64,000 nucleotides of DNA from Fennellomyces sp. T-0311 (lineage: Eukaryota; Mucoromycota; Mucoromycetes; Mucorales; Lichtheimiaceae): positions 620,001-684,000 of the forward strand of contig JALLLT010000006.1 of assembly GCA_025266875.1 (NCBI GenBank), read 5' to 3'. Shown one piece after another: positions 1 to 18,518 of this stretch. Made by a program: the position numbers and the translations under genes. Within the stretch, counting starts at the first letter, position 1. Every line of letters begins with the position of its first letter. The notes under the pieces were generated by a model that made no database searches, was not told the DNA's origin, and saw nothing but the letters and a program-made list of their open reading frames with translations.

Positions 1-1446
1 CCACTCACATCACGCTAGCAACCATCAAACCTAATTACCGCCTCTACGTTTTCATCTGCTTATATTTCCTAATTAACCGTATGCGTCAAGTGTGTAACCT
101 TAATCGATGTTACATTGCATAAATCACGGCCTGAGTGGACTCACACCTTAGTAATGAACAATACAAACCTGTGAGATGTGCAAATTAGCTGCTACGCGAT
201 ACTAAGTATGTAACGGCGCATGTACTCTCATCCCAGCGCTACCGATGCTAATAGCTTTTGGATAGATGTCTTGCACCAGATATCAGAAAAAATATCAGTA
301 CCCCAGCCAATTATCGAGTAAGTACAAATCGGGATGCTCGCACATCATAACGCCACTAAAGCACCACATGCAACGTACGATATTTCACCACGCAGATCTC
401 TTACCCTTGATCCTGAATATTCAGTACGTGTCTAGTACAATAATACATTCTACGTATAAGATATACTGTGTAGTACGCGCACTTGGTGATAAAGTTCACC
501 AGATGATAGGAGGGGAAGGGCAACGCTTCAAAATTTTGTCATTTTGTGGTTGAGGTTTTGCATTCAAAGTATCTAGTGAAAGAAGCCTTTTAGTGAATGG
601 CTTTGCAATATCTTTAAAAAACGTAATAGATCTCTTTCTTGAGTGTGCTCGCACATGAATTAAAAGATATCCTACTTATAAGCTGCATAATAAGTGAACT
701 AAATGGATACGCTGTTACACATGATTCGAAAACGCGTTTCTCATGTACTCTGGGGGCAGTTGATGATAGGCCAGGAGCATTATGGCTGGATATTGTTATA
801 CATTTTGTGAATTTATGAAACACTTTATGCCGGAACTTACTACGTCCTAACAGAGGTGGATAATTAGGGTATATACTGAGTTTCCTGAAAGGAGGTCAAT
901 TAATATGTGCATATTAAAGAAAATGGGATACCAATTCTCTAGTCGTCCGCGAAGTGAAGTGTCGGCTGCTTCAATAAGCCTACACATGAGTGCTTGGCTG
1001 CTTATTGGATAAAAGCACAATAATCAGATACAGCGTTTTTAATCCCGCAAACAAGCACAGATCGCCGATACAATATCGTAGTAAAAGGCTTTTTTTACCA
1101 CTTGTTTACAAACTCATCATTTTTCACGATTGAGAACATCCTCAAAATGCGAGCGCTACCGTTCATTACGATATAGTCGACGACAAAACAATCACGGTAC
1201 TTACCTTATATCACAGAGCCAGGCACCCTTTTTTTATAATATATAAGCACTGATATGACTAAAGAAAATAGCTTCAACGGGTTTATGCCAAAACGTACTG
1301 ATCTTTGATCACCAACGATTGCTGTAAGTATAAAAGAGGCTACATCGACTAGAAGCGACAGTAATCTTGACATTGCGAACGGGAAAACGTTTATGCGTCG
1401 AGCGAACTATAAAATTAGGGTAGATTAGAAAGATTATCTATCCTTC
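1..1446. other. Intergenic, no gene seen
   Basis: I see no reading frame with coherent domain content, no splice-linked exons and no repeat shared with the rest of the window. Short frames such as 266-553 are AT-rich and look random. Confidence 0.6.
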
Positions 1447-1519
1447 TGCCTACGATGTGAATCGAACACACGACCTTTGCTTTACGAGAGCAACGCTCTG
1501 CCATCTGAGCTACGGAGGC
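1447..1519 (-). tRNA. tRNA-Thr (anticodon CGT)
   Basis: Read on the minus strand this 73-nt stretch folds as a cloverleaf. The D-arm is GCTCAGATGGCAGAGC. The anticodon stem TTGCT/AGCAA encloses loop CTCGTAA, giving anticodon CGT. The T-arm is GTGTGTTCGATTCACAT, and the discriminator base is A. No intron is present. The acceptor stem GCCTCCG/CGTAGGC has one C-U mismatch at pair 5-68, which is unusual but does not by itself make it a pseudogene. It lies about 200 bp outside the edge of the transposon cluster. Confidence 0.88.
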
Positions 1520-1728
1520 ATCTTCCACAGCATTTTCAGTGGAAGGATTATCCAGATATGGCGCTAAAAAAGCAATTTTTTATTTTTTAAAATATAAAAG
1601 ATTAGTAATTAAAAAAGACTATCAATAGCTACATATTATTTAATTTTAATGCTTAGAAGAGTTTTTATAATTTATTATTAAAGAAAATATAAATATATTT
1701 ATTTTTTTAATTTTTTAATAAGAGAATT

Positions 1729-2122
1729 TGTGGTATCGCTCAATTGGAAAGCTTCAAATGACGAGACCAAAAATAAGATAATGTTTTATTGAAGAGAACT
1801 ACTCTCTATTTATAATGATGATGAGTCGGGACGGAGAAGGTGAATGCTTTTCTATCAGAGCCGAATCCGTGTTATCGCCGTAATCCCTAATGACCATACT
1901 GCCTTATTACGAAGGAGTGGATAGTCATGCAGAGACTGAGTTAACGTGAATGGTCCTTCTTGAAGTCTGAACCCAGATCAAGGTCTCACTGACACACAAG
2001 CCAGTGAACAGGCCAATAGATAACTGTGCGGTTGTTGATGTCGAAATAAAGGAACGGATGTAACAAAGGCTGAGATGGAAAGGTCTGTAGACAATGGATG
2101 ACTGGTATGTCAGGATACGACA
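1729..2122 (-). repeat. 3' LTR of the Ty3/gypsy element
   Basis: 394 bp, TG...CA ends, one mismatch to 7084-7477. Sense-strand promoter TATAAATAGAG and polyadenylation signal AATAAA lie about 20 bp apart, a layout repeated in most LTR families of this window. Confidence 0.95.
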
Positions 2123-2134
2123 TTGCCCCCCTCC
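2123..2134 (-). other. Polypurine tract
   Basis: On the minus strand GGAGGGGGGCAA directly precedes the 3' LTR start TGTCGTATCC. This is the expected primer site for plus-strand DNA synthesis during reverse transcription. Confidence 0.8.
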
Positions 2135-2261
2135 AGACGAAACAACCGTATGAAAAAGGATTGTTGTAGGTCCCTACGCTTGTGGATAAACAGCATACCA
2201 ATGACTAGAAAAACCCGGAAAAAAAACCCAGTGGGAAAAATGATGGGCAAAAAAGTCATGT

Positions 2262-5129
2262 CTAAGCACGTTTTGATTTTATACTGGAGGCAGTGTTGGC
2301 TGCGGCAACACGTCTGCGCTTTGACGAGCGTGTTTCTATATGACTGTGAGCAGAAGTCATGGAGAAGCTGTTAGCTCGCGAGTTTGTACTGGTCCCATCA
2401 GCACGTCTACGTTTGTTATTGGCAGTAGGAGCGGTCGCACGTCGACTCCAATATTGTTGGATGAGATCCAAGCTATTGAAGTGATCGGTAGGTTCCCAAG
2501 TATCTTCATTAGGATCATCATATCCCTTCCAACGTACCCGGTATAGGTATTGGTTGTTACTGTCAAGTTTGTGATCCACAACTGCAAGAATCTCGTATGT
2601 GTCGTCGGATTGTACGGTGGAATCCGGTGAGATTTGCTTGATGTGCGAAGGTGGAACGTTTCTTGATAGCAATTCCCCAGTAGTGTCAGAAAGAACATAA
2701 CTACCCCCTTTGGTAATACCATAGACAGTGTAAGGGCCAACATAAAGAGGATTGGTCTTAGCCGCTCTTGCAATGTTCTTGATCATGACCTTACTGCCGA
2801 TAGGGAAACCATCAATAATGCGGTTCTGACTGTCGAACTTACTTTTCTCAATAGCTCGTACAGCATCCATGCGAGCGCTGATAGCAGGAATGACAACCTT
2901 TTCCCAATCCTCGATGTGTTGCATCAGGGCCTTAGCATCCTTAGAGGATGAAGAGGCTGATCCGAGCTGAACACCGGTATAGTCTTGGAAACCATTAGGC
3001 TTACGGCCAAGCATCACGCTGAAAGGACGAGAACCATGCAATCTGGTATGGCGACAATTCATCGCCATTTGTGTACTGGACACAAAAAGATCCCATTCAG
3101 TGTTCTTTCCTTGTAATCGCTTGATGATGGTGCGCTTTGCAATTCCTACAGCATTCTCGGCGGCACCATTCCCGCGCGGATGATACTTTGAAGATAAGCG
3201 TAGCTCGTAACCAGAGGCTTTAGCAAGAAGTTTGCATAAAGAGTTGTGAAACTCTGTACCCCAGTCATGCGTAAGGACCATAGGATAGCCCAGCAAAGAG
3301 AACACGTCAACTAAAGTATACGCGATGGTGGAAGCTGATTTGTCAGGTATAGCTCGTAACACCACGAAACGTGTGAATATATCCAGCATGACAAGTAAAT
3401 AAGCATTACCACGGTCACTGACAACATTGAAGTCGCCAAGGTCGATTGCCCAATGATCTCCAGGTCTGTCAGCTTTCACGTGTTTCAAAGGATGGTAACC
3501 ATGTTTCCCGATGTTGAAGCGTTGGCAATCGGGGCATCTGGCCACTGTGTTCAGTGCATCCTTGCGAATGTTAGTCCAGTGAAGACTGTCATCGTGAAGT
3601 GCGTTGACAATAGCATCGGCACCGAAATGTCCAAGAAGGTGAGCTTCTTCGAGAAGTCCGGATCGTGCCTCATTCGGAGGTGTGATCATATCAACAGTAT
3701 TGGTCACTTGACTCATACGTAACGCAGGTGACTGCGCGTCTGTTGAAGAAGGCGCATCGCCACTCGTGGCAGGGTCTTTGTCTTTTTCTTCCAACGGACG
3801 CGAGAACAGACGACTCAAGTAATCAGGCAGCAGATTCATAATGCCAGGAATGTGCGCTACTCGAAATGAATAATCGCCAATGACATCGTACCAATTGATA
3901 ATCATCTGGTTTGCAACCGGTTGGGTATGAAGAAACGTAAGCACGCGATGGTCGGTGTAAACCGTGAAAGGTTTACGTGTACCCCACAACCACTGACGCC
4001 ATTTCTGTAGACAGTAGACGATTGACAACAATTCACGCTTTGTAGTTCCATATCGGGATTCACTAGAGGTGAGTGCTCGAGCCACGAAACCAATGTAACG
4101 ATATTGATTGTTAATGACTTGGAACAGCATTCCTCCAATGGAAGTTGAACTAGCGTCTGTAGCAAGACGAAGCTCATGCTTCATATCCACGTTGCTTAAA
4201 ACAGGTGCGCGTGAAAGTGCTTCCTTCAATCGTTCGAATGCCTCGGTGTGTTTGATAGTCCAGAGACCATCCAGAGAGCGAGCGTTTCGTAACTGATCAA
4301 GTGGACGCATCAATTCTGCTGCACGTGGTAGGAACGAGCGGAAGAAATTGCACAGGCCAAGAAAGCTCTGCACATCGCGACCTGTCTGAGGTCTAGGCCA
4401 ATCAAGCACGTTGGACACCTTTCGAGGGTCAAGTGCGACACCAAGAGACGAGATCTGGAATCCCAACAAGTACACACACTTTTGTGCAAAGTGACACTTC
4501 TTCCTGTTCAAGGTAAGGTTCACGGATGTCAATCTTTTCACCAGTTCAATGACGTGCAACTTATGTGTCTCCAGATCTGGCGACGCCACAATGCAATCAT
4601 CGAGATAGGTTTGCACAAATGGGAGATCGTGCGTCAACTTAGTCAGCAAAGCACTCCATTGTTGAGGAAGGATCTTCAATCCAAAACAAGCACGCTTCCA
4701 GATATAGCAAGTCTTATCGACAATCATGCCGAGCTTGAATTGATCCTCTTCTGCTATTGGCATGGTATTGAAAGCTGCGGTCACATCACAGACACTGTAT
4801 ACCGTGTTACCAGATAACGAGGAAAAGATGGAAGGTATATCGCGCATAGGGAAGTTGTAGTCATCGAGCATGACATTGATGTGCCGTACGTCCATACACC
4901 AACGATACGCAATGGGTTCGCCAGAGACTGGATCGCGTTTGGGGACACAAGTCAAGCCACTGTTGAATGGTGTGTAAGTAGGAGATACTGCGATCACCCC
5001 AGCTTCTAACCATTCGTCCAGCTGTTTCCGAAGAACTGGTTTCAGTGCATCTGCAACTCGGTATGGCGAGCGGTATGCACTTTCCCTGCAGGAGTGGGTA
5101 AACGTACCACTGCTTCTGGCATCGTACAA
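2262..5129 (-). CDS. pol: Pol polyprotein: reverse transcriptase, RNase H, integrase, chromodomain
   Basis: This 955-codon open frame is uninterrupted. Reverse transcriptase shows the first Asp in CDVTAAF (about residue 114) and the YLDD box (about 174). RNase H has ATDASS and YTDHR. Integrase carries an H-H-C-C zinc finger ending CPDCQR. Its catalytic triad lies in WAIDLGDF, LTHDWGTEF and GNGAAENAVG. The C-terminus is a chromodomain with the aromatic pattern YEIL...WKGY...TWEP, which in chromoviruses binds methylated histone H3 and steers integration to heterochromatin. The first ATG here is not the real start: the frame belongs to a gag-pol polyprotein whose upstream part (5110-7001) lies in other frames. 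It is therefore probably not translated in full today. Confidence 0.92.
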   Translation of the reverse strand: MYDARSSGTFTHSCRESAYRSPYRVADALKPVLRKQLDEWLEAGVIAVSPTYTPFNSGLTCVPKRDPVSGEPIAYRWCMDVRHINVMLDDYNFPMRDIPSIFSSLSGNTVYSVCDVTAAFNTMPIAEEDQFKLGMIVDKTCYIWKRACFGLKILPQQWSALLTKLTHDLPFVQTYLDDCIVASPDLETHKLHVIELVKRLTSVNLTLNRKKCHFAQKCVYLLGFQISSLGVALDPRKVSNVLDWPRPQTGRDVQSFLGLCNFFRSFLPRAAELMRPLDQLRNARSLDGLWTIKHTEAFERLKEALSRAPVLSNVDMKHELRLATDASSTSIGGMLFQVINNQYRYIGFVARALTSSESRYGTTKRELLSIVYCLQKWRQWLWGTRKPFTVYTDHRVLTFLHTQPVANQMIINWYDVIGDYSFRVAHIPGIMNLLPDYLSRLFSRPLEEKDKDPATSGDAPSSTDAQSPALRMSQVTNTVDMITPPNEARSGLLEEAHLLGHFGADAIVNALHDDSLHWTNIRKDALNTVARCPDCQRFNIGKHGYHPLKHVKADRPGDHWAIDLGDFNVVSDRGNAYLLVMLDIFTRFVVLRAIPDKSASTIAYTLVDVFSLLGYPMVLTHDWGTEFHNSLCKLLAKASGYELRLSSKYHPRGNGAAENAVGIAKRTIIKRLQGKNTEWDLFVSSTQMAMNCRHTRLHGSRPFSVMLGRKPNGFQDYTGVQLGSASSSSKDAKALMQHIEDWEKVVIPAISARMDAVRAIEKSKFDSQNRIIDGFPIGSKVMIKNIARAAKTNPLYVGPYTVYGITKGGSYVLSDTTGELLSRNVPPSHIKQISPDSTVQSDDTYEILAVVDHKLDSNNQYLYRVRWKGYDDPNEDTWEPTDHFNSLDLIQQYWSRRATAPTANNKRRRADGTSTNSRANSFSMTSAHSHIETRSSKRRRVAAANTASSIKSKRA

Positions 5130-7001
5130 TAGGCATCCTTTGGTATAGCCGCGTTAGCATCCAGGTACGGGGCAAGAGCATCAAGAAACGATTGCTGCTG
5201 TTCCTTGCTACCCGCTGGACTGGCGTTTGGGATATACTCATCTGGCATCGTAGGAGGATCTCTGGGAACTCCTGGTCTGTGCCAACAATAAGGAAGATTG
5301 CCAATGTATATACCAAAGTGATGTTTGATGTCATTGCCAATGGCAATATCAGCATTACCATGTAATCGAACACTTCAAAGTGATGGTAGATAGCTTTGTC
5401 ATTGCAAGAAATAAGTAATTTATTCTTTGTAATTCCTAATCTAGGTACAAGAGTCCCTTTGTGTGCAGTGTGCACATGACCAGGCCGAGGCTCCACTTGC
5501 CAACCCATTTGCTTACACAGCGACGAGGAAACAGTGCTATGTGTCGCGCCAGGATCAAGGAGCGCAAGGAACTTGTGTTTTTCTAGGTAAACAGGAATGT
5601 AATATGAGCGTGTATTCTCGAAAGAAAACTCATGTGAAGACTGTGTAGACTTACAATCTGTACAGGGACCAACCGCGAGGTCCAAATCACCCATGACGAT
5701 GTCCAAATCGTCGTCGTCATCATCCTTCTTCTTAGGAGGAGCAGGAGGCTCGGACTCCACAACATCAGACGAACGGATCGCCAATGTTTGGCACTTGTGC
5801 CCATGTCGCCAAGGAGCACCACACTTGTGACAGGTATTGCCACGTCTAGGGCACCAGCAGAAGAAGAGGAAGATGAGGATGCAGATGAGGGTCCTGACGA
5901 ACCCAAAGAAGAGCCCGAGGAAGAGCCCGAAGGTGAGCCAGCAGAAGACGAGGCCCGGAAGGGGTTGTGCATGCTTGCACTCGAACCAACCGAAGAACTT
6001 TGAGCTAGTACCTTAGCTCGTACCTTGCAGTCCTTGGTGTCATGACTACCATTCCCGTGAAGCTCACAGAATTGCGAGGGTCTCTCCACACGGCGGCGTT
6101 TGCCATCTCTACGAGACGACGAACCACCGGAAGAAGCGGCAGTAGAGGAGGAATCATCCCCCAAAGAGGAAGGAGCGGAGTCCCGAGTCCGATTGGCCTT
6201 GCGGGAGCGAGCCTTGTTGACGCCCTTCTCCAGAGCGAGAGCGAGGAGGAAATACCAGCCAAAGTGTTCTTCTGGTGCGACGGCAAACCAGCACGAGCAG
6301 TATACACCCGGTCTTGAAGGTCAGGTAAGAGGGCATCGATATACTTGTTCACCATAACGAAGTTGTCATCGGCTTTGGCATCGCGGCGGAGCTTCTCAAA
6401 GCGGGCGGTGAAAAGCGCAACAGTCTCCGACGAACGCATTTGTACACTCATCAACTGATCTGTCAAATCCGCTACACGATCAGCTTCATTAACATCCAGA
6501 TCTTCGACCAGACGGGAGCGAGCAAAGGACCAGGGCCTATCGTGTACGGTTCAAGGTTAACCGCAAACCAAGAACGATGCTCAGGGGAGAGCAACATAGG
6601 GAGGAATCGTGGCCAAGACTTGTCAATATCCCAGCCATCACCATAAACACATCTTCAAACTTGGTAAGACAATCGTCTAAAGTGGGGAAAGTGGACGCCG
6701 ACGGTTTCCACACATAACCAGACCATTGCAGGCATGGCAGGTTAGACGGTGCACGACCCAAACGGTCAGGAACGGAAGCTGCGGCTACAGCAGGAGCGAA
6801 AACAGCTTGGGCAGCAGCGGCAAAGGAGATGGCTTCTTGCAACCGAACCATGTGGGCCTGAAGTTCTTGAGCATTACCATTCCCGGAAGCAACGGCATTG
6901 GTAAATTCGCGGGTTACACGAGCCAACTCCGCTCTCAGATCGGCAATGCCTTGACCAGCATCTTCTTGAACCGAAATGGAGTTCGTCGAATGTTCAGACA
7001 T
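5110..7001 (-). pseudogene. gag: Frameshifted gag-protease of the Ty3/gypsy element
   Basis: The likely gag start is the ATG at 7001. Coherent coding continues through successive pieces in different frames, with shifts near 6650, 6230, 5860, 5340 and 5110. The capsid-like part contains the typical DKSWPRFLP and LTDQL stretches. It is followed by a Ser-rich linker with a Cys/His motif (CELH...H...C, with His where a zinc knuckle usually has its second Cys). A second knuckle, CHKCGAPW...HKC, sits next to the 5860 shift. The aspartic protease site is LLDPGATHS, with Pro where Ser or Thr is usual. Five frame changes are too many for programmed shifting, so this copy should not make Gag. Confidence 0.8.
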
Positions 7002-7083
7002 GATATGAGGTGGAAGAAAAGGTAAGGTAAGGTATGTAAAAAAAAGGTTTAGAGTAGAGTTCGAAAGAATTCGTCAAAAAAAA

Positions 7084-7477
7084 TGTGGTATCGCTCAATT
7101 GGAAAGCTTCAAATGACGAGACCAAAAATAAGATAATGTTTTATTGAAGAGAACTACTCTCTATTTATAATGATGATGAGTCGGGACGGAGAAGGTGAAT
7201 GCTTTTCTATCAGAGCCGAATCCGTGTTATCGCCGTAATCCCTAATGACCATACTGCCTTATTACGAAGGAGCGGATAGTCATGCAGAGACTGAGTTAAC
7301 GTGAATGGTCCTTCTTGAAGTCTGAACCCAGATCAAGGTCTCACTGACACACAAGCCAGTGAACAGGCCAATAGATAACTGTGCGGTTGTTGATGTCGAA
7401 ATAAAGGAACGGATGTAACAAAGGCTGAGATGGAAAGGTCTGTAGACAATGGATGACTGGTATGTCAGGATACGACA
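7084..7477 (-). repeat. 5' LTR of the Ty3/gypsy element
   Basis: 394 bp, paired with 1729-2122. It carries the minus-strand TATA box and polyadenylation signal and is followed outside by the GAATT duplication. Confidence 0.95.
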
Positions 7478-7485
7478 GAATTACT

Positions 7486-8018
7486 TGTCAGAAATGTGAG
7501 TGGAGAGTAGGAGCACGACCTAATAGAAGATAGCTAGGAACAAGACGGAGATAAGAATACTACTCTACTAAAGGATAATACAACTACTAACCAATCAACA
7601 AGAATGCAAGAACCTACGAGAATGGATCAAGCGGCAAGACAGAACAAGACAAGAACAAGACTAGACTAGAAGGTGGGTGTTAGGTGCTTTCCACTACGCA
7701 TTGACCACATGGATGGTTACCAATGGCAAGACCGGACAAGGACAAGAACTAGGATAGAGGTGGATCCTAGAGGTTGGTCAAGACAAGGATAAGGTAGATA
7801 GAATAATGTGACGAGATAAACTGATGCCTTTATTGCTCTTATTCTTATCCGATATATATACCCAATGCTCGCAAGAAATAATAAATACAACGATGGAATT
7901 AATGACAATGAAGTACAATATCGGTAAGATGAGCAATAATGCAGGGTAATATTAATGAAGTAAGGGGAAGGGGGTGACAACGATGCATACTGTTACTATG
8001 TCCTAATCGGTCATGACA
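7486..8018 (-). mobile_element. Solo LTR, 533 bp (family J copy 1)
   Basis: Ends are TGTCAGAAATG and GGTCATGACA, flanked by the perfect 5-bp duplication TTACT (7481-7485, 8019-8023). It is inserted a few bases inside the MULE terminus. The minus strand carries a TATATATA box and CAATAAAGG. A second copy at 16158-17875 is broken by two later insertions, and this copy supplies the empty sites for both. Confidence 0.92.
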
Positions 8019-8106
8019 TTACTACAGGTACAACAAAATTTCAGCTTAGCCACGACAAAAAATTGAATTAGCCAATCAGCTTTTCTTAATAAAACATGTA
8101 AAATAC

Positions 8107-8423
8107 TGTTGTATCCACAACATGATTATAGCTTATGCATCATTTACCCTTGTTTGCTTATTGACAACGGGTTACTTTAATTTTCCGATCTACAGCCACA
8201 TCCCTGTCTTGACATGCATTCATCATAATAACCTTGCCTATCTTAGTGAAACCCACATAACCCTGGTTACCACAGCGGTTCATGTGCCTTACAACCATGT
8301 CAATGATCCAACCCCTCGAGAATAAGCTTTTATTATTTAAAGTGATAATTCAACATACGAAATAAATCAGTCATTACTTGAGTTTCATCACTTACCTGCC
8401 TTTTACTATTGTTGAATATCACA
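8107..8423 (+). mobile_element. Solo LTR, 317 bp (family F copy 1)
   Basis: Starts TGTTGTATCC, ends AATATCACA, flanked by AATAC (8102-8106, 8424-8428). Copies of exactly the same length lie at 13589-13905 and, inverted, 14642-14958. It interrupts the left inverted repeat of the MULE. Confidence 0.93.
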
Positions 8424-8458
8424 AATACCAAAAAACTTGTCATGCCCTCATAACTGCT

Positions 8459-9141
8459 TGTCGTATTCCCGACATACACTATCTTCCATGGTTACATGCT
8501 TTTCCTTCGTTATGCTATATCCGCGGTCATTACGACATCAACAACCGTACAGTTATCGATTGCCTTATTTGCTCTTATGTGCAACCATTGCATTGCTCTT
8601 ATGTGCAACCTTGATTCGGGTTTACCGATCGTAAGGCAACTCCTTTAACTTGGTTCCATATGTTCTTCGGCTCCTTCATCTATAAGGCAAGATCATATGA
8701 AAGTCGGCAATAACATTGTGGTGTCCAGGAGTTAAGACCGAGAAGGTGTTAAGGAGTTAAGCCCGGATAAGAATTCAAATACTGAGAATTGCACTCAGCT
8801 GAATAAGCATTCAGAATCATGGATGGTACTACGTACCTGTACCACATAGTACAATAGTAGTAGAATAGTATATAAGCTTTATTGAATGGATAGTAGAACG
8901 GGAGCTGATCTTCAGAATAAATCCGTGTCTCAAAGGATTCCTATTTGTCTTCATATTCCTACTATCACTTACATTCAACCAGATAACACAAACATGGATC
9001 ACAGGCTTATTAGACAAAGCATTCGCCTTCTTCGTCCCGAACTCATCAACAGTATAAATAGAGAGCAGTTTTCCTCAATAAAACATTATCTTATTTTGGT
9101 CTCGTCATTCGAAAGCCTTTCCTCGTTTAAACGATACCACA
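8459..9141 (+). mobile_element. Solo LTR related to the Ty3/gypsy LTR, itself interrupted
   Basis: Starts TGTCGTATTC, ends GATACCACA, and is flanked by CTGCT (8454-8458, 9142-9146). It aligns along its length with the 394-bp LTR of the intact element, including the TATAAATAGAG and AATAAA blocks. Differences are a 24-bp internal tandem duplication near 8577-8612 and a 274-bp nested insertion at 8717-8990. It lies about 100 bp upstream of the MULE gene start. Confidence 0.92.
8717..8990 (+). mobile_element. LTR nested inside an LTR, 274 bp
   Basis: Starts TGTGGTGTCC, ends GATAACACA, flanked by AACAT (8712-8716, 8991-8995). When it and one AACAT are removed, the host LTR reads through into the matching part of the 394-bp LTR consensus. 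It contains TATATAAGC and AATAAA signals. Confidence 0.9.
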
Positions 9142-9240
9142 CTGCTATGCTCATCATTTACTGCCTGATCCTAATTTGTGAGCTTGTGCTTTGTGATCTT
9201 ACATTCTTCAACATTACGTACATCACATAATCTACTCTTA

Positions 9241-12200
9241 ATGGAGCAAATCAACATTACTGAAGATCCTATTATCATTACGACTAAGTTGTCTACTGCA
9301 ACGCTAAATCGGCGCTACCAAACCCTTAGTGAATCACGTCAGGTGATAGCAGCAGAGGTTGTACAAGAATGCAAGTTCCCAGTTGTGACAGGAACAAGCA
9401 ACAACCATAGCGTCTACTTGTGCTGCAAACACTATGGGGATTTACGTTCCCATAAAGGCAAGTTTGTTTAAGAACTAAGACATTTATCGAAACATACAGA
9501 AGCATATAGATGTTAATAAAGTAAGATCAGGTGTCAATAATGAAAATGGATTAAATGAGGATACTACAACCGCGCGTAAAGCGTATACTTGCAACAACGG
9601 TGTAGTAAAGAAAAACCTGACAAGACGCTCAACAAAGACTGGTTGTACATGGAAAGTGTATGTCTCAAAGATAAAAGCCGACAAAGGGAGGTGGACCATT
9701 AAGCTCGCAAAGAGCAGCTTTGGTCACAATCATAAGCTGTCTAAAGATCGAAAAATGTATCACGAGCTACGAAAGCCTACTGGTGAACAGCAGATCGGAA
9801 TTGGTATGATGATGCAAGCAAACGTGCCACCGAAGCAGATCTTGGAGTTTATGGGTGCCGCAGATAAAACGTTGCAAATGAAAGGCAAGGATCTGTACAA
9901 CTTCCGCCAAAAATACATGAGCAATGGCGACTCAACTACGACCGAATTTGCTGCAATCATCGATGACCTTTCGGCGTACAACTATATTTTTCGAGCACAA
10001 TTGATGACTGACAACAACAGGCTCAAGTCTATGTTCATCACACATAACAGATGCATCGAGCGAACAAGATCATTCCCCGAGGTCATAATCATCGATACAA
10101 CCTACAAAACGAACATAAACAAGATGCCGGTTGTCAACATTGTTGGTATTGATAACCTTGCATCGGAATACGGGTGTCGAAGCCTACGATCATTCTTTGT
10201 TGGTGCAGCAGTTGTTGTGGACGAGAAGCTCTTGTCGTACAAGTGGATATTGCAACAGCTTAAAGATATCGTGTTTTACGATGATATGAAACCGGGTATA
10301 TTCGTTACTGATGATGACAAGGGATTGCGTGCCGCGCTTCAAACTGTGTTCCCGAGCTTGCCACATATCCTATGCGCATGGCATATTCGCAAAAATTTCA
10401 TTGCCAAAGCAGGTACTTCATTCAAGCAAGGCACAGATGAATACAAGTACTTCACCCTATGGTGAAACAACCACAGATGATAATAATAGAAGATATTTCC
10501 TATCGGATAACACATATCGGTTCAACATCATCACGAAGTGTACTTACATAGTAACTTGTCTACACGGATTAAAAATTAAACCGTATGAACGAATGGGATA
10601 AACTCAACAGGACATGGAATTGACTCCAATATAGCAATGCGGTCATTACACTGCATGGCAGATGTCAAAGACATCCTCAGATCCGCATGATCAGAACAAA
10701 GGAAAGGATCCTATACGTCCTCCATCCATTCAGGCAATTCTGAAGACGAAACACTATCTAAACTGCCATCGCTAATTCAATACACAAAAAGATATAAAAG
10801 CATAGAGCGTTGCATTCAATAAAGCATATCCGAAACTTCAAAGATACTTTTATAAGTCTCTTTTTATTCTTTGTACCGTTGATTCACTTCACACCCAATC
10901 GTGTATTAGTCAGCTAATCTGGTGCCGTAACGAAGATGACTTTGAGACGGCCATCAGAAACTACCGTGCAGCCATCAAAGGCGTCGTAAAGGAAAAAGAA
11001 CTGAGCAACTACTTGGATTTGTTAGTGTACCATGACTCTTACTGTCTAGATCACTCATTCTAATCGCATACATATGCATAGACTTTACGATTACAAGGAA
11101 AAATGGGGCGGTCCATGGATGGAAAAGCTTATGCACCTAGGCGCCAGATCATCGCAGAGAGTCGAGGGTACGCACTGGTCTATCAAAAGCATACTTAACA
11201 CACCCGGCAAACTCTCCAAGCTTTTTAAGTCCATAAGAATATATCTGGAAAACGAGGTGGGTTGTGGAGTTATAGTTCAACTAACTAAAGGCCGATTATG
11301 TTAATTATCTGCCTAACAGGACGCAAAAGCGGTAACCAAACATGAAGAGGAATACCTCACAAGATTGGTAATCAAAAGCGGTGACGATATCGACAGAGGC
11401 ACGATGAAAATTATGCAAAGGCTATATGGCCGCATTTGTCAATTTGCAATCTTTGCAATCAACGTCGAGATCCGCCGTGCTAAGGATAAAGCAATCAATG
11501 ACAAGCACTTAAATGAGTGTGATTGCGCGGTGAGTGTGAACTTTGGGTTACCATGCTATCATATTCTGTTCCAAGCTGCTGCTGGTGATCTCAAATCATT
11601 TATTATTGACCCGAGCACCATTGATGCAAGATGGCATCTAAGAACCACCAAGGGTAAGTTACCTACTCATTTTTTGCTAGCACGTTATATTTAACCATAA
11701 CTGCTCTACATCAATATGCAGATCATGTTTCATATACGCCAATCGTCGATAATAACGTCCTCTACGCTAATGGATCGGAAGACATACGTGTTCAAGAACG
11801 CTTTAATAAGCTAAAACATGATATAGCCACTGCATATAAGGACTGTCAAACAAGCTCCCAACGTATTGAACTTCTGATGGCGTTGGAGCAGACGCTCTCT
11901 GGCTTCGTAGCGGTGGATGTTAATGACATTTACCTTCCTACAGATGTGAAAACAAAAGGCAGACCCAAGCTCACGAAAGGTTCAAGATTGCCGTCGTTGT
12001 GGGAACATGCAGAGGCGAAGCAGAAAAAAGAAGCCGAGAAAAAGAAGCGAAAGGACGTAGAATCAATGCAAGATAGAGAAGAGAACCGGCGTCCTACCAA
12101 GAGGTACGGAATACGTACAGGTAAACAGTGTATTTGAAAAGAGTAGTTGATAAACTTCTTGTACTCTTTAGAGTCCGTTTTGCGACGCCTCCTCCTGTCG

Positions 12201-13044
12201 TATCCAGTGGTATCGGGAGACAAATGAGTTGTATCTAGTGTAACATGCGGTAGCTTAAGAATAGTCTATTTTCAATTTGTGTTTCTCTCTCTCTTTTCCG
12301 GAATAAATCTCTCCTCAAAAGAGTCTCACGAATTACTTCGTCCATACACACACCTAAACACACCTAAACACTTCACCTCCAGATGACCAGCTGTACTATG
12401 AAGTCAGCGGAGCACCTTTTGATGTACATCCTGAAATCCCAAAGGAGTATGTTACTCGTGTTGTTGACATACGGAGCGATGGATGGTGTGGATATCGAGC
12501 AATTGCCTGTCACGTAACAGGGAACCAGGATGACGCCGTGTCTATTAAGCAAGCTATGCTGCAACAGCTTCTTGAAAACCTCGAATTCTACGAGCAAAAT
12601 CTCTGGGGCGGACACAAATGTATCACTGAGGAAGTTCTTAATCGCCTCAGATACCAGCAAAACTTTGGTGTATCATCCTGCAGTATCGATTACTGGATGG
12701 ACGCAACCATTGAATTGCCGATTGCTGCCGATGCGTTTAATATGCCTTTTGCAGTTTATTCGACCGGTAACACGACTGAACAACCAACCTTATACCTGCC
12801 ACACTTTGAGCCACATACCAGAATTCGCCGCTCTCCAGGTATTATACAACACACCGATGGCAATCATTTCGTTGCGCTGCATGTTCGCAAGAGCATCAGT
12901 AGCATAACGTGGCCTCCAGTCAGCCAAGGGTATTTAAATAGATGTGATAAGGCAGGTATACCTGACCCCCGCTACACTTTCTGGCGATATTTAAGCATTG
13001 CGCCAACTCCCCAAGTTAACCCCCCTATCTTTTTAAGCATTTAA
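9241..13044 (+). CDS. MULE transposase with FAR1 region, SWIM finger and OTU protease domain (disrupted by two LTRs)
   Basis: Exons: 9241-9457, 9510-10464 continuing at 10925-11020, 11082-11256, 11320-11653, 11722-12120, and 12174-12195 continuing at 12381-13044. Lengths sum to 2,862 nt (953 residues) once the LTRs at 10465-10919 and 12196-12375 and one copy of each target duplication are skipped. Intron 1 uses a GC donor (G|GCAAGT). Domains: a Cys/His FAR1-type DNA-binding region (about 50-145, ending HNHKL); a MULE catalytic core with Asp in IIIDTTYK (about 267) and VTDDDKG (about 340) plus CAWH; a SWIM finger CDC...CYH (about 548); and an OTU domain with DGWCGYRA (Cys about 768) and GNHFVALH (His about 896). 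The first three match FAR1/MULE transposases. The OTU part is a deubiquitinase-type fold not needed for transposition. Both LTRs sit inside exons, so the present transcript is broken. Confidence 0.88.
10465..10919 (+). mobile_element. 455-bp LTR-like insertion in the transposase exon
   Basis: Flanked by TGGTG (10460-10464, 10920-10924). Removal with one TGGTG rejoins the transposase frame exactly. It contains TATAAAAGC and CAATAAAGC spaced as in LTRs, but the ends (AAACAACC...GCTAATC) lack TG/CA, so the class is less sure than for the other insertions. Confidence 0.75.
12196..12375 (+). mobile_element. 180-bp minimal LTR in the OTU exon (family L copy 1)
   Basis: Starts TGTCGTATCC, ends CACTTCA, flanked by CCTCC (12191-12195, 12376-12380). 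It splits the exon just upstream of the OTU catalytic motif; removing it restores the frame. An inverted 179-bp copy is at 15055-15233. Confidence 0.9.
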
Positions 13045-13463
13045 AACATATAGATCATTGATAACATATTGGTATATAGATTCTATATAGCACACGCTTC
13101 GGTTTTTGGTTTTTCTGTCGTCCTATTATTGTTGCATATATCCGAAACAGAAACTACACAAAATTACAGTAATGCTTCTAAAAAATGTCGGTAGTATGTA
13201 CATGGTTAGTAAATATTTATGGTCTCGTTTCAGAGTTATACCATAGGTATAGTATGAAGGTAATGTAGCGTCAATAAGTAGATATTGCTTGATTTGTACG
13301 TATGTGCTGTAAAAAGCGCTTTAAGTGATCAGAAAAGAGCAATAATCTTTATTAGTACTCGAATTTGAGTCAAAGAAAATAAGATGATAACACGAGGCAC
13401 AAGTACGACGAGCTAAACAATAATGTGAGGCGTAGAAGTCATATAGGGCACGACAGAAACAAG

Positions 13464-13576
13464 GGGCACGACAAGTTTTTTGGTATTTTACGTGTTTTAA
13501 TAAGAAAAGCTGATTGGCTAATTCAATTTTTTGTCGTGCCCGAGCTGAAATTTTTGTGGCGCCCGTAGTAATTCTC
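13464..13576 (-). repeat. Right terminal inverted repeat of the MULE
   Basis: 113 bp, the reverse complement of the reassembled left repeat. It is preceded inward by another GGGCACGACA block (13446-13455) that also occurs at 13464-13473 and, inverted, near 13532-13541. These are possible transposase-binding sites (inference). Confidence 0.88.
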
Positions 13577-13588
13577 TTTTAATAATAT

Positions 13589-13905
13589 TGTTGTATCCAT
13601 AACATGATTATGGCTTATGCATCATTTACCCTTGTTTGCTTATTGACAACAGATTACTTTAATTTTCCAATCTACAGCCACATCCCTATCTTGACCTGCA
13701 TTCATCATAATAACCTTACCTATTTTAGTGAAATGTACATAACTTTAGTTACCACAGTGGTTTATGTGCCTTACAACCATGTTAATGATCCAACTCCTCA
13801 AGAATAAACTTTAATTATGTAAAGTGATGATTCAACATACAAAATAAATCAGTCATTACTTAAGTCTCATCACTTACCTGTCTGTAACTATTATTGAGCA
13901 TCACA
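13589..13905 (+). mobile_element. Solo LTR, 317 bp (family F copy 2)
   Basis: Same ends and length as 8107-8423 but more diverged. It starts 3 bp after the MULE target duplication. The flanks AATAT and TCTGA do not match, so the right or left border has probably been rearranged. Confidence 0.85.
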
Positions 13906-14067
13906 TCTGATAATAATAGACATCTCTATCATATTCTCAATTAAGATATTAACAATACTTTATTTCCAGTAACTGTTTACCACAGCAGTAGATATAAATA
14001 CTGGTTGTAATCCTACATTGAATGAAAGGAAAAACCTGAGTTTCACAGGATCCATCCTTTTTGATCA

Positions 14068-14434
14068 TGAAGTCTTCTAAATTCCTCAGATGACACCAGA
14101 AATAAGCTTATGTTTTATTAAAGGAAGTTGCTTTCTATTTATACTAATGATAAGCTGGGATGGAGAAGACCAATGCTTTATGTAATAGTCCCAAAGATCT
14201 ATATTATCACCAAGTTTTATATGATCTTACCATATTATCGAAGACGCTGAAGATCTGAGACCAAGTTAACGGATTTGCCTTACATGATTGGTAACGCCTG
14301 ATCAAAGTTGCACATAAGAGTAAGTAGGGCCATCGATAACTGTACACTTGTTGATGTCATAATGACATTGGATGTAATTAAGGACTAAGAAAAGCATGTA
14401 ACCATAGATGATGATGTATGTCAGGAATATGCCA
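14068..14434 (-). mobile_element. Old diverged solo LTR of the Ty3/gypsy family
   Basis: Read on the minus strand, it starts TGGCATATTCC and aligns with 8459-9141 and the 394-bp LTR, including TATAAATAGAAAG and AATAAAAC. Ends are decayed (TGG instead of TGT) and no target duplication is visible; the left border is approximate. Confidence 0.7.
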
Positions 14435-14489
14435 TACCACAAAGACCATGACTCTTCTTTCAGCAAAACCAGAGCTGTTGATGGGTTCC

Positions 14490-14641
14490 TGGAGGCTATG
14501 TATTGTATATCAAGCTTACAAGTGTTCAATATGAGTCTTAATTGTAGTATCTGTACTAAGGACAGGTTATACGACTTTGTGCGATGGCTTCAGCAAACAA
14601 AAGTCAACAGTCTTACACTACTTCAAGGAGTTTTGTACTTC
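14490..14641 (+). other. Short open stretch, possible fragment of a cyclin-like exon
   Basis: Between two LTRs an open frame reads LYDFVRWLQQTKVNSLTLLQ and then stops in the LTR at 14642. The pattern resembles the start of a Pcl-type cyclin box, but it is too short to be sure. It may be a host or transposon exon cut off by the LTR at 14642-14958. Confidence 0.25.
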
Positions 14642-14958
14642 TGTGATATTCAACAATAGTAAAAGGCAGGTAAGTGACGAGACTCAAGTAATGACTGATT
14701 TATTTCGTATGTTGAATCATCACTTTAAATAATAAAAGCTTATTCTCGAGGGGTTGGATCATTGACATGGTTGTAAGGCACATGAACCGCTGTGGTAACC
14801 AGGGTTATGTGGGTTTCACTAAGATAGGCAAGGTTATTACGATGAACGCATGTCAAGACAGGGATGTGGCTGTAGATCGGAAAATTAAAGTAACCCGTTG
14901 TCAATAAGCAAACAAGGGTAAATGATGCATAAGCCATAATCATGTTGTGGATACAACA
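14642..14958 (-). mobile_element. Solo LTR, 317 bp (family F copy 3)
   Basis: Inverted relative to the other two copies, ends TGTGATATTC and GGATACAACA, flanked by the perfect duplication ACTTC (14637-14641, 14959-14963). Confidence 0.93.
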
Positions 14959-15054
14959 ACTTCTAAATAGTATCTCTTGCTTGGCTAGTTACCTACATTA
15001 TTTAAGCTTTCTCTATACCAACAATACCAAATCCAAAGAAACTGTGTCATTAAC

Positions 15055-15233
15055 TGAAGTGTTTAGTGTGTTAGGTGTGTGTGTGGACGAAGTTATTTCG
15101 TGAGACTCTTTAGAGGAGAGATTTATTCCGGAAAAGAGAGAGAGAAACACAAATTGAAAATAGACTATTCTTAAGCTACCGCATGTTACACTGGATACAA
15201 CTCATTTGTCTCCCGATACCACTAGATACGACA
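15055..15233 (-). mobile_element. 179-bp minimal LTR (family L copy 2)
   Basis: Near-identical inverted copy of 12196-12375, sharing the TCTCTCTC tract and GGAATAAATC block. Flanks TTAAC (15050-15054) and TCAAC (15234-15238) match at four of five bases. Confidence 0.85.
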
Positions 15234-15293
15234 TCAACAAAAGTACCTGCTATATTTGGGGATAGTCATGGTCTTTTTTACATGCTTCAGAAG

Positions 15294-16009
15294 TGTGATA
15301 AAAGAAGGGTAAAAACTTATATCAATTGAAAGTCGCTGAGAGCGGAATAGAGCTCTGTTATAAGATTGATTGCCTCGATATTCTATGATAGTACTCTATT
15401 ATACTGGTCTGTTCAGATCATCGTTTACTACGATATTCTAGCCCTTCTTTCATCGGATGCTTCTTTAGCATCTTTTCATTTCTTTAGTGTGTCGGTTCTC
15501 TCTTTAGACTCGCACTAAGGGATATATTCCTTGATTACTTTTATTCGATTTCTCGTTTTTCTGAATTATCATGTCAGCTGTTAAATCAAGAGAGAGAATA
15601 AGTACGAAAGACAAATATGTCAACGAGACTCAAAAAGGTAACTGATTTATTTCATATGTTTTGCTCTCTATTTATAATAAATGCTTATCATGATGGGATT
15701 TCCTTAAGCCGGTATTTCCGTGAGTGATATGTAATGTCAACCTTATTATCGTTGAGCAGTTACGGATTGTGATGATCGGTAGGATGAATGCTGACAGAGC
15801 ATATCCGTGAAGAGACGCGTTGACCGGAAGGTCGTGTCTATGAGCAACCTGATTGGCTGAGTATTTGGTAAGCATGAAGCTCAACGTTCCGATGTCGGAA
15901 GTGGGAAGCGGCGGTAAGGATGGAAAGCTCTTATTCGCTGACGGACAGCATAGATGACAAAGAAGCTTGCTAGGGTGTGTTCATGTTGGATACAACATCA
16001 GCTACGACA
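15294..16009 (-). mobile_element. Solo LTR (family I copy 1) carrying a nested LTR
   Basis: Ends TGTGATA and ACGACA, flanked by AGAAG (15289-15293, 16010-16014). It is related to 16384-16674. It is interrupted by the LTR at 15579-15997 directly after ATTATCATGTCAGC, a stretch that is continuous in the other copy. Confidence 0.88.
15579..15997 (-). mobile_element. Nested solo LTR, 419 bp (family H)
   Basis: Ends TGTTAAATC and GGATACAACA, flanked by TCAGC (15574-15578, 15998-16002). The minus strand has TATAAATAGAG followed by AAATAAATC. Confidence 0.9.
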
Positions 16010-16383
16010 AGAAGGACCTAGGAAGGCTCATCTTGGCAGAGTCAAAGGTTGTATAGGCGATCATGCTTTGAACTTTGGCATGTTGCTGACATTTGCTAGT
16101 CAAGAAGCTTCATAGTGTAGACTTTGAAGTGGCCGCCGGTGTACATGACATGGAGAATGTCAGAAATGCGAGTGGAGAGTAGGAGCACGACCCAATAGAA
16201 GATAGCTAGGAACAAGACGGAGATAAGAATACTACTCTACTAGAGGATAATACAACTACTAACCAATCAATAAGAATGCAAGGACCCACGAGAATGGATC
16301 AAGCGGCAAGACTGAACAAGACAAGAACAAGACTAGGCTAGAAGGTGGGTGTTAGGTACTTTCCACTACACATTGACCAAATG

Positions 16384-16674
16384 TGTGATATAGAAGGATC
16401 AATTGGTAACAATAAAGAGTCGCTGAGACCGTAAAATAAATCTCTGTTCTGGTTCCATTTTCATCTGCTAAACTAGTGCCTTATTTATACTGCTGACTAC
16501 GGCACATCTTTGACTGTCCTTCTAGCATCTTCTAGTTATTGAAGGTACATTTGTCATCTAGTGATGTTTCACTGAGTGTCGCTCTTCACTCTGATTGTTT
16601 CACTTCCATATTTTTATCCGAACTTATGTTTATCCGAATACATCTTTATGCGAATTATCATGTCAGCCACGACA
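16384..16674 (-). mobile_element. Nested solo LTR, 291 bp (family I copy 2)
   Basis: Ends TGTGATATAG and CCACGACA, flanked by AAATG (16379-16383, 16675-16679). The minus strand carries TATAAATAAGG. The empty site is CATTGACCACATGG in the first J copy. Confidence 0.92.
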
Positions 16675-16972
16675 AAATGGATGGTTACCAATGGCAAGAC
16701 CGGACAAGGACAAGAACTAGGATGGAGATGGATCCTAGATGTTGGTCAAGACAAGGATAAGGTAGGTAGAATAATGTGACGAGATAAACTGATGCCTTTA
16801 TTGCTCTTATTCTTATCCGATATATATACCCAATGCTCTCAAAAAATAATAAATACAACGATGGGATTAATGACAATGAAATACAATATCGGTAAGATGA
16901 GCAATAATGCGGGGAAATATTAATGAAGTAAGGGGAAGAGGGTGACAACGATGCATAATGTTACTATGACCT

Positions 16973-17856
16973 TGTAACAGTGCAGACCACAGTATACTTA
17001 CAATTGTGTGCGTTGCTGTGAGTCAGACAATGTTACGATAATGACCCGAAGGTGGAACCGGTTATATGAGAGTATAAACGATGAGGATTCTTGTATCCAG
17101 GAATCCTGCTTTATATATATGCCAGATATTAGGGGTAATAACTAAGGCGTCTATGATCTACAATCTACGAATTCCATCTAAGCTATACCTAATCCTAATA
17201 TCCTTATCCAACCATGCGCCGTGTGGGTTGTCGCATGCTACGTCTATCAATACGGTATATGTATTTCTGCATGGTGTTATGCCGTATCTCTATCGATTTA
17301 GACACAACTGAAAATTTGACAAGAATAGCTTGTCTTAATGAGTTTTTCGTATAATACCTAAACACAGGTTAGTAACCTAAAAGGTTAGTTAAATTGACCG
17401 CAGGAGTTCTTGAGCTTGGACTTATATTTCGGATGCCAACTGCAGTAATATCTAGAAAAAAAAACTAAATACGTCTCAAAAGAGAAAAAGCTAAAAAGTA
17501 AGTTTAGCAGGAAAAGAACTGTAGTTTATTGAAAATACGAACGCTCTATTTATACCTTATATATTCCAGCTATATATTTCTAGAATCTAAGGGTATTCTG
17601 GATAATTACACTAAGGAGGAACAGATAGCTGTTCTGATAAGATCTTTTTCTGAACAAGGTCTCGTATTCTGAACAAAAAATTCGTTTCTGGATAATTATT
17701 CGTTTCTGGGTAATTTTAGGTTTCATATGAACCAATAAGGTTTTACCATTCCAAGTGACCTTAACAGATTTTAGTTTTCAGAACCAAAAGTAGCGTAACA
17801 ATGGCGATCAACCGGGTTGCAGGTTGGATAACGTCAGTAATGGACACACCATTACA
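16973..17856 (-). mobile_element. Nested solo LTR, 884 bp (family K)
   Basis: Ends TGTAACAG and ACCATTACA, flanked by GACCT (16968-16972, 17857-17861). The minus strand has TATAAATAGAGCG then CAATAAAC. No coding potential was seen in it. Confidence 0.88.
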
Positions 17857-18136
17857 GACCTAATCGGTCATGACAGAGAACATAAACACAAACCTTCTGT
17901 AGATACACCTTTTTTATTTTGGTCACCTCGTAAAATCATGTCGCACAGCTAGTATGTGACCTTGGTAGTCATTGTAGGTGCAGTCAATGGTGAAGATGTA
18001 CTTTTCAGGAAGCTTTCTCTGTTTCAAATTACAATATGTTACTTAGTTAACTTGAATCTCATTATATCGAACGCATTAAAGTATGTACTACGACGAGAAA
18101 GTCGTATCCATAAGTAACGGGAGTATAAAGTTATCA

Positions 18137-18518
18137 TGTGGTATCGCTCAATTGGAAAGCTTCAATGACGAGGCCAAAAGTAAGATGATGTTTTATTGAG
18201 GAAAACTACGCTCTATTTATAATGAAGATGAGTCGGGACGGAGAAGGTGAATGCTTTTCTATCAGAGTCGAAGCCGTAGTCTCTAATGACCATACTGCCT
18301 TATTACGAAGGAGCGGATAATTATGCAGAGACCAAGTTAACGTGAATGGTCCTTCTTGAAGTCTGAGCCCAGATCAAGGTCTCACTGACGCACAAGCAAG
18401 TGAACGGGCCAATAGATAACTGTGCGGTTGTTGATGTCGAAATAAAGTAATGGATGTAACAAAGGCTGGGATCGAAAGGTATGTAGACAATGGAGGACTG
18501 GTATGTCAGGATACAACA
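18137..18518 (-). mobile_element. Solo LTR of the Ty3/gypsy family, 382 bp
   Basis: Closely matches the 394-bp LTR of the intact element apart from a small internal deletion and scattered changes. Flanks TATCA (18132-18136) and TATCG (18519-18523) match at four of five bases. It shows this chromovirus family has been active locally more than once. Confidence 0.92.

What the first reader, a model, noticed from the sequence alone, without database searches (positions are those of the whole stretch)
1722..13576. A MULE DNA transposon can be reassembled from six superimposed LTR-type insertions
Seen: a 9-bp duplication TTTTAATAA bounds 1722-13576, with 112/113-bp inverted repeats starting GAGAATTACTAC. 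Six internal insertions each carry a perfect 5-bp duplication (GAATT, TTACT, AATAC, CTGCT, TGGTG, CCTCC). Deleting them leaves 3,908 bp with one spliced 953-codon frame. Nine-bp duplications and long inverted repeats are established MULE traits. Inference: the element was autonomous before the insertions.
Basis: partly seen in the sequence, partly recalled or inferred. Interest (0 to 1): 0.85.

Follow-up and report, generated by a model that had tools for sequence, protein, structure and literature searches.

The report
Jumping gene riddled by retrotransposons
A cut-and-paste jumping gene in a mould's genome was broken up by seven later retrotransposon insertions, most of them crowded into the end next to a tRNA gene; the layering is real and mostly ordinary, but the crowding by the tRNA gene and an extra protease-like part on the jumping gene are worth testing.

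Summary
The structure is real. A Mutator-like element (MULE) spans 1722-13576, with a perfect 9-bp duplication and inverted ends of about 113 bp. The host is almost certainly Fennellomyces sp. T-0311 (Mucorales). Its genome holds five other elements or single ends of this family: one uninterrupted (C132, about 3.98 kb), two with their own perfect 9-bp duplications. Two corrections. (1) The claimed TGGTG duplication is wrong: natural copies and other copies of that LTR give CACCC, 21 bp more MULE sequence and seven more codons. (2) The CTGCT insertion holds a further LTR (duplication AACAT), so there are seven insertions on two levels. The inserted LTR families are multicopy; insertion 1 is a two-LTR Ty3/Gypsy element with chromodomain. 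Prior autonomy is plausible from open exon pieces but unproven; the empty site could not be tested. Two extras: the gene ends in an OTU-like domain, a pairing seen at 45 of 80 OTU-like places; and four of six first-level insertions lie 208-324 bp upstream of a tRNA-Thr gene. Elsewhere in the genome LTRs (chiefly insertion 3's family) look enriched near tRNA genes, mainly upstream: a post hoc, small-sample lead. Nested insertion into MULEs is well known.

The parts
1713..1721 (.). left copy of the MULE 9-bp target duplication TTTTAATAA
13577..13585 (.). right copy of the MULE 9-bp target duplication
1722..1728 (+). first 7 bp of the left inverted end (GAGAATT); continues at 7483-7485 and 8024-8106, together beginning GAGAATTACTACAGG as at the left ends of C161 and C9
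8024..8106 (+). main piece of the left inverted end
13463..13576 (-). right inverted end, about 113 bp
1729..7477 (-). insertion 1: Ty3/Gypsy element with chromodomain, LTRs 1729-2122 and 7084-7477 (99.746% identical over 394 bp, one difference), duplication GAATT
7486..8018 (.). insertion 2: solo LTR 533 bp, duplication TTACT
8107..8423 (.). insertion 3: solo LTR 317 bp, duplication AATAC
8459..9141 (.). insertion 4: solo LTR (8459-8716 + 8991-9141), duplication CTGCT, itself interrupted
8717..8990 (.). insertion 7 (second level): solo LTR 274 bp inside insertion 4, duplication AACAT
10458..10891 (.). insertion 5: solo LTR 434 bp, duplication CACCC (corrected border)
12196..12375 (.). insertion 6: solo LTR 180 bp, duplication CCTCC
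9241..9465 (+). MULE gene, first open piece (MEQINITE...), intron border uncertain
9500..10457 (+). MULE gene, exon 2 left of insertion 5 (start uncertain); MULE transposase domain PF10551
10897..11038 (+). MULE gene, exon 2 right of insertion 5 (end approximate)
11086..11256 (+). MULE gene, exon 3 (approximate), with RVEGTHW
11320..11655 (+). MULE gene, exon 4 (approximate), CxC(x9)CxH SWIM-like motif
   Evidence: motif read by eye
11724..12122 (+). MULE gene, exon 5 (approximate)
   Evidence: joints as in the annotated relative P0010
12171..12195 (+). MULE gene, exon 6 left of insertion 6
12381..13044 (+). MULE gene, exon 6 right of insertion 6: OTU-like domain, DGWCGYRA ... GNHF
1446..1520 (-). 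tRNA-Thr(CGU) gene; the MULE and its insertions lie on its 5' side

Best explanation
A Mutator-superfamily DNA transposon of about 3.9 kb, encoding a MULE transposase with a C-terminal OTU-like domain, inserted by cut-and-paste and duplicated 9 bp (TTTTAATAA), 202 bp upstream of a tRNA-Thr gene. Later, LTR retrotransposons integrated seven times, six directly into it and one into an LTR already there, each duplicating 5 bp. LTR-LTR recombination then left six of the seven as solo LTRs; the Ty3/Gypsy element at the left end is recent (LTRs differ at 1 of 394 bases). The gene is interrupted inside exons by insertions 5 and 6, and the left inverted end by insertions 1, 2 and 3, so this copy should be dead. 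Shown: anatomy, duplications, colinear natural copies, multicopy LTR families. Inferred: MULE first and LTRs later (forced by the nesting), solo-LTR formation by recombination, earlier mobility, present inactivity.
For: Inverted end: 11 matches, 9 of them outside this element. Perfect 9-bp duplications at three copies: window, C161 TTAATGAAA, and C9 left end with C181 right end TTTACATTA. MULE domain E 1.2e-19; exon-2 product 94-98% identical in C161, C132, C9. Flanks join with gap 0 in natural copies: insertion 5 in C132, C131, C9; insertion 6 in C132, C161, C131. LTR searches returned 40-77 rows each. Insertion 1 codes RT, RNase H, integrase and chromodomain in Gypsy order.
Against: C132 lacks a perfect 9-bp duplication (AAATAAG occurs on both sides, on the right 7 bp further out) and C131 shows none. 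No empty site was available. About 37 bp beside insertion 4 that C161 and C9 have are absent in the window, and the flanks at insertions 3 and 4 align only loosely on several sides because of small indels there. In C161 insertion 5's site is interrupted by another insertion (gap 1,815), and in C9 insertion 6's flanks were not found. 'LTR' for insertions 2-7 rests on TG...CA ends, 5-bp duplications, copy number and, for several families, pairs about 5 kb apart; their internal parts were not read.
Confidence: 0.94

Rival explanations
1. On why the insertions crowd: tRNA-gene-directed integration. Some LTR families of this fungus integrate within some hundreds of bp of tRNA genes, mainly upstream, and the MULE happened to occupy that zone upstream of tRNA-Thr.
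For: Insertions 1-4 lie 208, 211, 294 and 324 bp upstream of the tRNA in pre-insertion coordinates; 4 of 6 in the first 125 bp of a 3,929-bp element has P about 1.5e-5 under uniformity. With the window tRNA left out and all 290 LTR places used, 6 of 43 tRNAs have an LTR within 1 kb upstream (4 of 43 within 500 bp); in the shift test (42 usable tRNAs, shifted by 3-30 kb) the counts are 6 upstream and 9 on either side, null means 1.45 and 2.33, reached or passed by 2 of 5,000 and 0 of 5,000 shifts. MULE transposase places: 0 of 43 within 2 kb on either side. Insertion 3's family alone: 4 of 43 upstream, 0 of 43 downstream within 1 kb.
Against: Post hoc. The upstream bias is weak: 3 of 43 downstream within 1 kb (null mean 0.95, 264 of 5,000 reach 3). 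Families 1, 2, 6 and the inner LTR of insertion 4 have no other case within 1 kb upstream. ARAGORN found no tRNA in 24 fetched copies of families 2, 5 and 6 with 1.5-kb flanks (3 of the 24 are the window's own; one flank ends inside a tRNA listed). Ten further places of insertion 3's family include none within 1 kb of the 44 tRNAs. The tRNA list is partial (63 of 1,670 candidates scored) and several cases sit on contigs with low coordinates, probably short and repeat-rich. Insertions 5 and 6 lie 1.6 and 2.9 kb away.
Confidence: 0.4
2. On why the insertions crowd: ordinary accumulation. Retrotransposons pile up in old transposon islands, and the left-end cluster is chance.
For: 12 of 24 fetched LTR copies have a piece of one of these LTR families in their 1.5-kb flanks, 9 of 21 without the window's own (a wider count with TE proteins, 16 of 24, may include the elements' own bodies). 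More LTRs of the same families lie at 13589-18518. [quoted passage not shown]
Against: Does not by itself explain four hits in 125 bp or the excess near tRNAs.
Confidence: 0.5
3. Not a MULE but a chance or segmental arrangement of repeats.
For: None found.
Against: Several natural copies with matching ends, colinear gene and 9-bp duplications.
Confidence: 0.01

Closest known systems
MULE-Mucorales (group 5 of Dupeyron et al. 2019, PMC6446971; passages seen)
   Same: Mucoromycota host, one ORF, SWIM finger (here SWIM-like by eye)
   Different: listed with 10-bp duplication, 40-bp inverted ends and no other motif; here 9 bp, about 113 bp and an OTU-like domain. Phylogenetic placement was not tested
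MuDR-6_HM (Cnidaria; same table)
   Same: MULE with an 'Ovarian Tumour Gene' motif
   Different: cnidarian, no inverted ends listed
Ginger1 transposons and OTU-bearing Helitrons/Helentrons (PMC2836005, PMC6431247; passages seen)
   Same: OTU-like protease on a DNA transposon protein
   Different: different transposase or replication proteins
Nested insertions in coding MULEs of maize and rice (PMC3903597; abstract and passages seen)
   Same: LTR elements inside MULEs, often several per element in maize
   Different: plants; here a fungus, mostly solo LTRs, four at one end
Pol III-directed LTR elements: Ty3, Ty4, Tj1, Beta/Tca8, Tyl3, Tyl6, Ylt1 (PMC5911963, passages); DGLT-A and Skipper-2 (PMC5006619, passages); Ty1 (PMC3545840, start of abstract in a listing)
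   Same: position upstream (Skipper-2: downstream) of tRNA genes
   Different: here only an association at about 0.2-0.7 kb for one family, in a group of fungi for which I saw no report

Membership tests
Mutator-like element (MULE) | 8-11 bp, typically 9-bp target duplication | tested here: met
   of six elements: 3 perfect, 1 imperfect, 1 absent, 1 with one end only
Mutator-like element (MULE) | long terminal inverted repeats | tested here: met
   about 113-117 bp in five elements; the single C35 end is shorter
Mutator-like element (MULE) | MULE transposase domain with DDE residues | tested here: met
   PF10551 E 1.2e-19; D, D and E motifs (IIDTTYK, TDDDKG, RVEGTHW) read by eye, motif recalled
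Mutator-like element (MULE) | SWIM zinc finger (common, not universal) | tested here: inconclusive
   CxC(x9)CxH by eye in exon 4 (consensus recalled); no Pfam match
MULE-Mucorales group 5 | 10-bp duplication, 40-bp inverted ends, no extra motif | tested here: not met
   9 bp, about 113 bp, OTU-like domain
OTU cysteine protease | OTU fold with Cys and His catalytic motifs | tested here: inconclusive
   Pfam OTU E 0.022 and 0.15 for P0010, none for P0009, all below cut-off; a four-row profile finds OTUD5 in PDB at E 0.0045 and 0.0098; low-confidence model (pLDDT 46.8) ranks DUBA/OTUD5 first, E 0.13, not significant; DGWCGWRA in 12 of 26 loci of distant families
Ty3/Gypsy chromovirus (insertion 1) | RT - RNase H - integrase order, chromodomain, LTRs, 5-bp duplication | tested here: met
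tRNA-gene-directed LTR retrotransposon | significant excess of copies at a fixed side of tRNA genes | tested here: inconclusive
Autonomous, active element | intact gene and demonstrated transposition | not testable with these tools
   open pieces only

The most novel reading that the evidence does not exclude
In Fennellomyces (Mucorales) some LTR retrotransposon families (chiefly that of insertion 3, perhaps those of insertions 4 and 1) are directed to a zone about 0.2-0.7 kb upstream of tRNA genes. The MULE sits in that zone upstream of tRNA-Thr and recorded repeated hits, four of them within about 116 bp. This would be Pol III-directed LTR integration in an early-diverging fungal lineage.
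Probability: 0.35. Interest if true: 0.62.

Novelty: new member of a known kind. Interest (0 to 1): 0.42.

Why it matters
The locus is a clean layered record: a transposon and seven later insertions, two of whose borders natural copies fix to the base. It gives (a) a Mucorales MULE family with an OTU-like domain, an accessory that the survey passages I saw list only for a cnidarian MULE, and (b) a testable hint that LTR retrotransposons of early-diverging fungi use tRNA genes as integration landmarks, as in yeasts and dictyostelids.

Tried and rejected
Rejected: chance or artefact (natural copies exist). Rejected: TGGTG as a duplication. Tried without success: identifying the host by rRNA (not completed); done instead by an annotated protein, P0010, of Fennellomyces sp. 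T-0311 on a contig of 1,313,056 bases, exactly the length of C161. A single-sequence fold of the OTU-like piece was useless (pLDDT 37.2); a three-row alignment gave 46.8. A pattern for tRNA B boxes gave 20 rows against 10 in its control and was not used for counting. A diverged query added ten places of insertion 3's family and no new tRNA case. The order of insertions 1 and 2 cannot be told from their overlapping duplications. A link between MULE places and tRNAs was looked for and not found (0 of 43 within 2 kb), although the inverted end of the C132 copy ends 1.7 kb upstream of a tRNA.

Literature: no report of OTU-bearing fungal MULEs or of tRNA-directed LTR elements in Mucorales was seen in ten searches (capped listings) or in passages of eight papers. 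The Muszewska 2017 survey of fungal cut-and-paste transposons is not held, so this absence is weak.
Full report
1. Where it is. The window is G000:C139:620001-684000 of a 45.6-Mb, 182-contig assembly. A protein search with the OTU-like piece of C132 found a hypothetical protein of Fennellomyces sp. T-0311 on a contig of 1,313,056 bases, the exact length of C161; its letters agree with the C161 copy (by eye). So the host is almost certainly this fungus (Mucorales, Lichtheimiaceae). The rRNA route did not complete.

2. The MULE. TTTTAATAA flanks GAGAATT (1722) and GTAGTAATTCTC (13576). The 113-bp right end has 11 matches in the genome, two of them this element's own ends: pairs at C132 (88427-92409), C161 (21647-27433) and C131 (88151-98039), single ends at C9, C181 and C35. 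C161 has a perfect 9-bp duplication (TTAATGAAA). The C9 left end and the C181 right end share TTTACATTA and are most simply one element split over two contigs. C132 has only AAATAAG on both sides, displaced by 7 bp on the right; C131 has none; C35 has one end. Exon 2 carries the MULE domain (E 1.2e-19); its product is 94-98% identical in C161, C132 and C9. The remaining listed matches, of 115 in all, are pieces of the decayed C131 copy (66-85%) and more distant families, at most 56% identical.

3. The insertions. BLAST of the window against C132 gives three long colinear blocks of the MULE body that break only at insertions 5 and 6. Corrected list: 1, 1729-7477 GAATT; 2, 7486-8018 TTACT; 3, 8107-8423 AATAC; 4, 8459-9141 CTGCT; 5, 10458-10891 CACCC; 6, 12196-12375 CCTCC; and 7, 8717-8990 AACAT, inside 4. 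For insertion 5 the flanks join with gap 0 in C132, C131 and C9, for insertion 6 in C132, C161 and C131; C161 at site 5 is interrupted by something else, and C9 did not yield site 6. The flanks at insertions 3 and 4 align only loosely on several sides because of small indels, and about 37 bp next to insertion 4 are missing in the window relative to C161 and C9. Seven other copies of LTR 5 were fetched: six begin TGTGGTGAAA (one seen as reverse complement) and one TGTGGCGAAA. Rows returned: 40, 46, 44, 42 and 40 for families 1, 2, 3, 5 and 6 and 77 for the composite insertion 4; each search scored only about 40 candidates, so these are lower bounds. Insertion 1 is a Ty3/Gypsy element with RT, RNase H, integrase and chromodomain on the minus strand and LTRs differing at 1 of 394 positions. 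I only observed it.

4. The gene. The eight insert-free pieces tested are open; joints of exons 3 to 6 agree with the annotated relative P0010 (by eye). Intron 1 is uncertain. C132 departs in frame in the SWIM-like exon and C161 has about 1.8 kb inserted in exon 2. Thus autonomy before the insertions is plausible, not shown.

5. The OTU-like domain. The last 220 residues score below the Pfam OTU cut-off (E 0.022; P0010 0.15 and P0009 no match). A profile of four rows finds OTUD5 in PDB (E 0.0045 and 0.0098). The structure model is poor (pLDDT 46.8), yet its first two PDB matches are OTU proteases (E 0.13 and 0.97, neither significant). The motif DGWCGWRA appears in 12 of the 26 fetched loci of more distant MULE places (L025-L050; many loci end before the site); the window motif DGWCGYRA is not matched in the decayed C131 copy, and one other regex match (L009/L014, DGSCETRV) looks like chance. 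A Lichtheimia corymbifera MULE protein ends in the same stretch (P0006; by eye). In this genome 45 of 80 OTU-like places lie 1.2-1.95 kb downstream of one of the 115 MULE places on the same strand, where about 0.003 per place is expected; 35 of 80 are not so placed, among them the C161 and C9 copies of this family, whose spacing is stretched. Published: Dupeyron et al. 2019 list an ovarian-tumour motif for a cnidarian MULE and none for MULE-Mucorales (PMC6446971); OTU domains also occur in Ginger1 and Helitrons (PMC2836005). A role in ubiquitin removal during transposition, as proposed for Ginger1 in that paper, is the likeliest use here; it is inference.

6. The tRNA gene. A tRNA-Thr(CGU) gene lies at 1446-1520, minus strand, so the MULE is on its 5' side. 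In pre-insertion coordinates insertions 1-4 lie 208, 211, 294 and 324 bp from it; 5 and 6 at 1,635 and 2,934. I compared 44 tRNAs (partial list: 63 of 1,670 candidates scored) with the LTR places: first 258 places, with 32 of the 77 rows left out, then all 290. Without the window's tRNA, 6 of 43 have an LTR within 1 kb upstream and 3 of 43 downstream (2 of 43 in the first count). Shifting the 42 usable tRNAs by 3-30 kb gives means of 1.45 and 0.95; 2 of 5,000 shifts reach 6 upstream, 264 of 5,000 reach 3 downstream, and 0 of 5,000 reach 9 on either side (mean 2.33). MULE places: 0 of 43 within 2 kb. The upstream cases come from family 3 (4 of 43), family 4 outer (1) and family 5 (1). Against it: no tRNA by ARAGORN in 24 fetched loci of families 2, 5 and 6, ten new family-3 places without a case, post hoc choice, partial lists. 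I rate tRNA-directed integration at 0.35-0.4; the recount did not move this, since the upstream result stayed and the side bias became weaker.

7. Known or new. [quoted passage not shown] tRNA-directed LTR elements are known in yeasts and dictyostelids (PMC5911963, PMC5006619). The element is a new member of a known kind; the OTU-like domain in a fungal MULE and the tRNA association are the parts worth following.

Noticed in passing
window 1446-1520 and 1722-9146: Four of six first-level LTR insertions crowd into the first 125 bp of the MULE, 208-324 bp upstream of a tRNA-Thr gene.
   Followed up: partly
window 13589-13905: Full-length solo LTR of insertion 3's family (about 90% identical) starting 4 bp right of the MULE duplication, without a matching 5-bp duplication (AATAT / TCTGA).
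   Followed up: partly
window 14642-18518: More LTRs of families 3, 6, 2 and 1 (98%, 96%, 95%, 90%): the region is a transposon island.
   Followed up: no
L013 about 1710-3532 (C161): About 1.8 kb inserted in exon 2 of the C161 MULE copy; the frames at its two ends look inverted-repeated, as in a DNA transposon (by eye).
   Followed up: no
L017 (C9) and L016 (C181): Left and right ends of one MULE copy on two contigs, sharing TTTACATTA: probably an assembly break in a nested copy.
   Followed up: partly
L056: A family-5 LTR inserted inside another, 88% identical, family-5 LTR.
   Followed up: no
window 20750-57920: Host genes by Pfam: OPT transporter, SET and MYND proteins, PDR-type ABC transporter, F-box/WD40, Sec7/PH, actin family, Sec5 (9 of 10 frames scanned had a match).
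   Followed up: no
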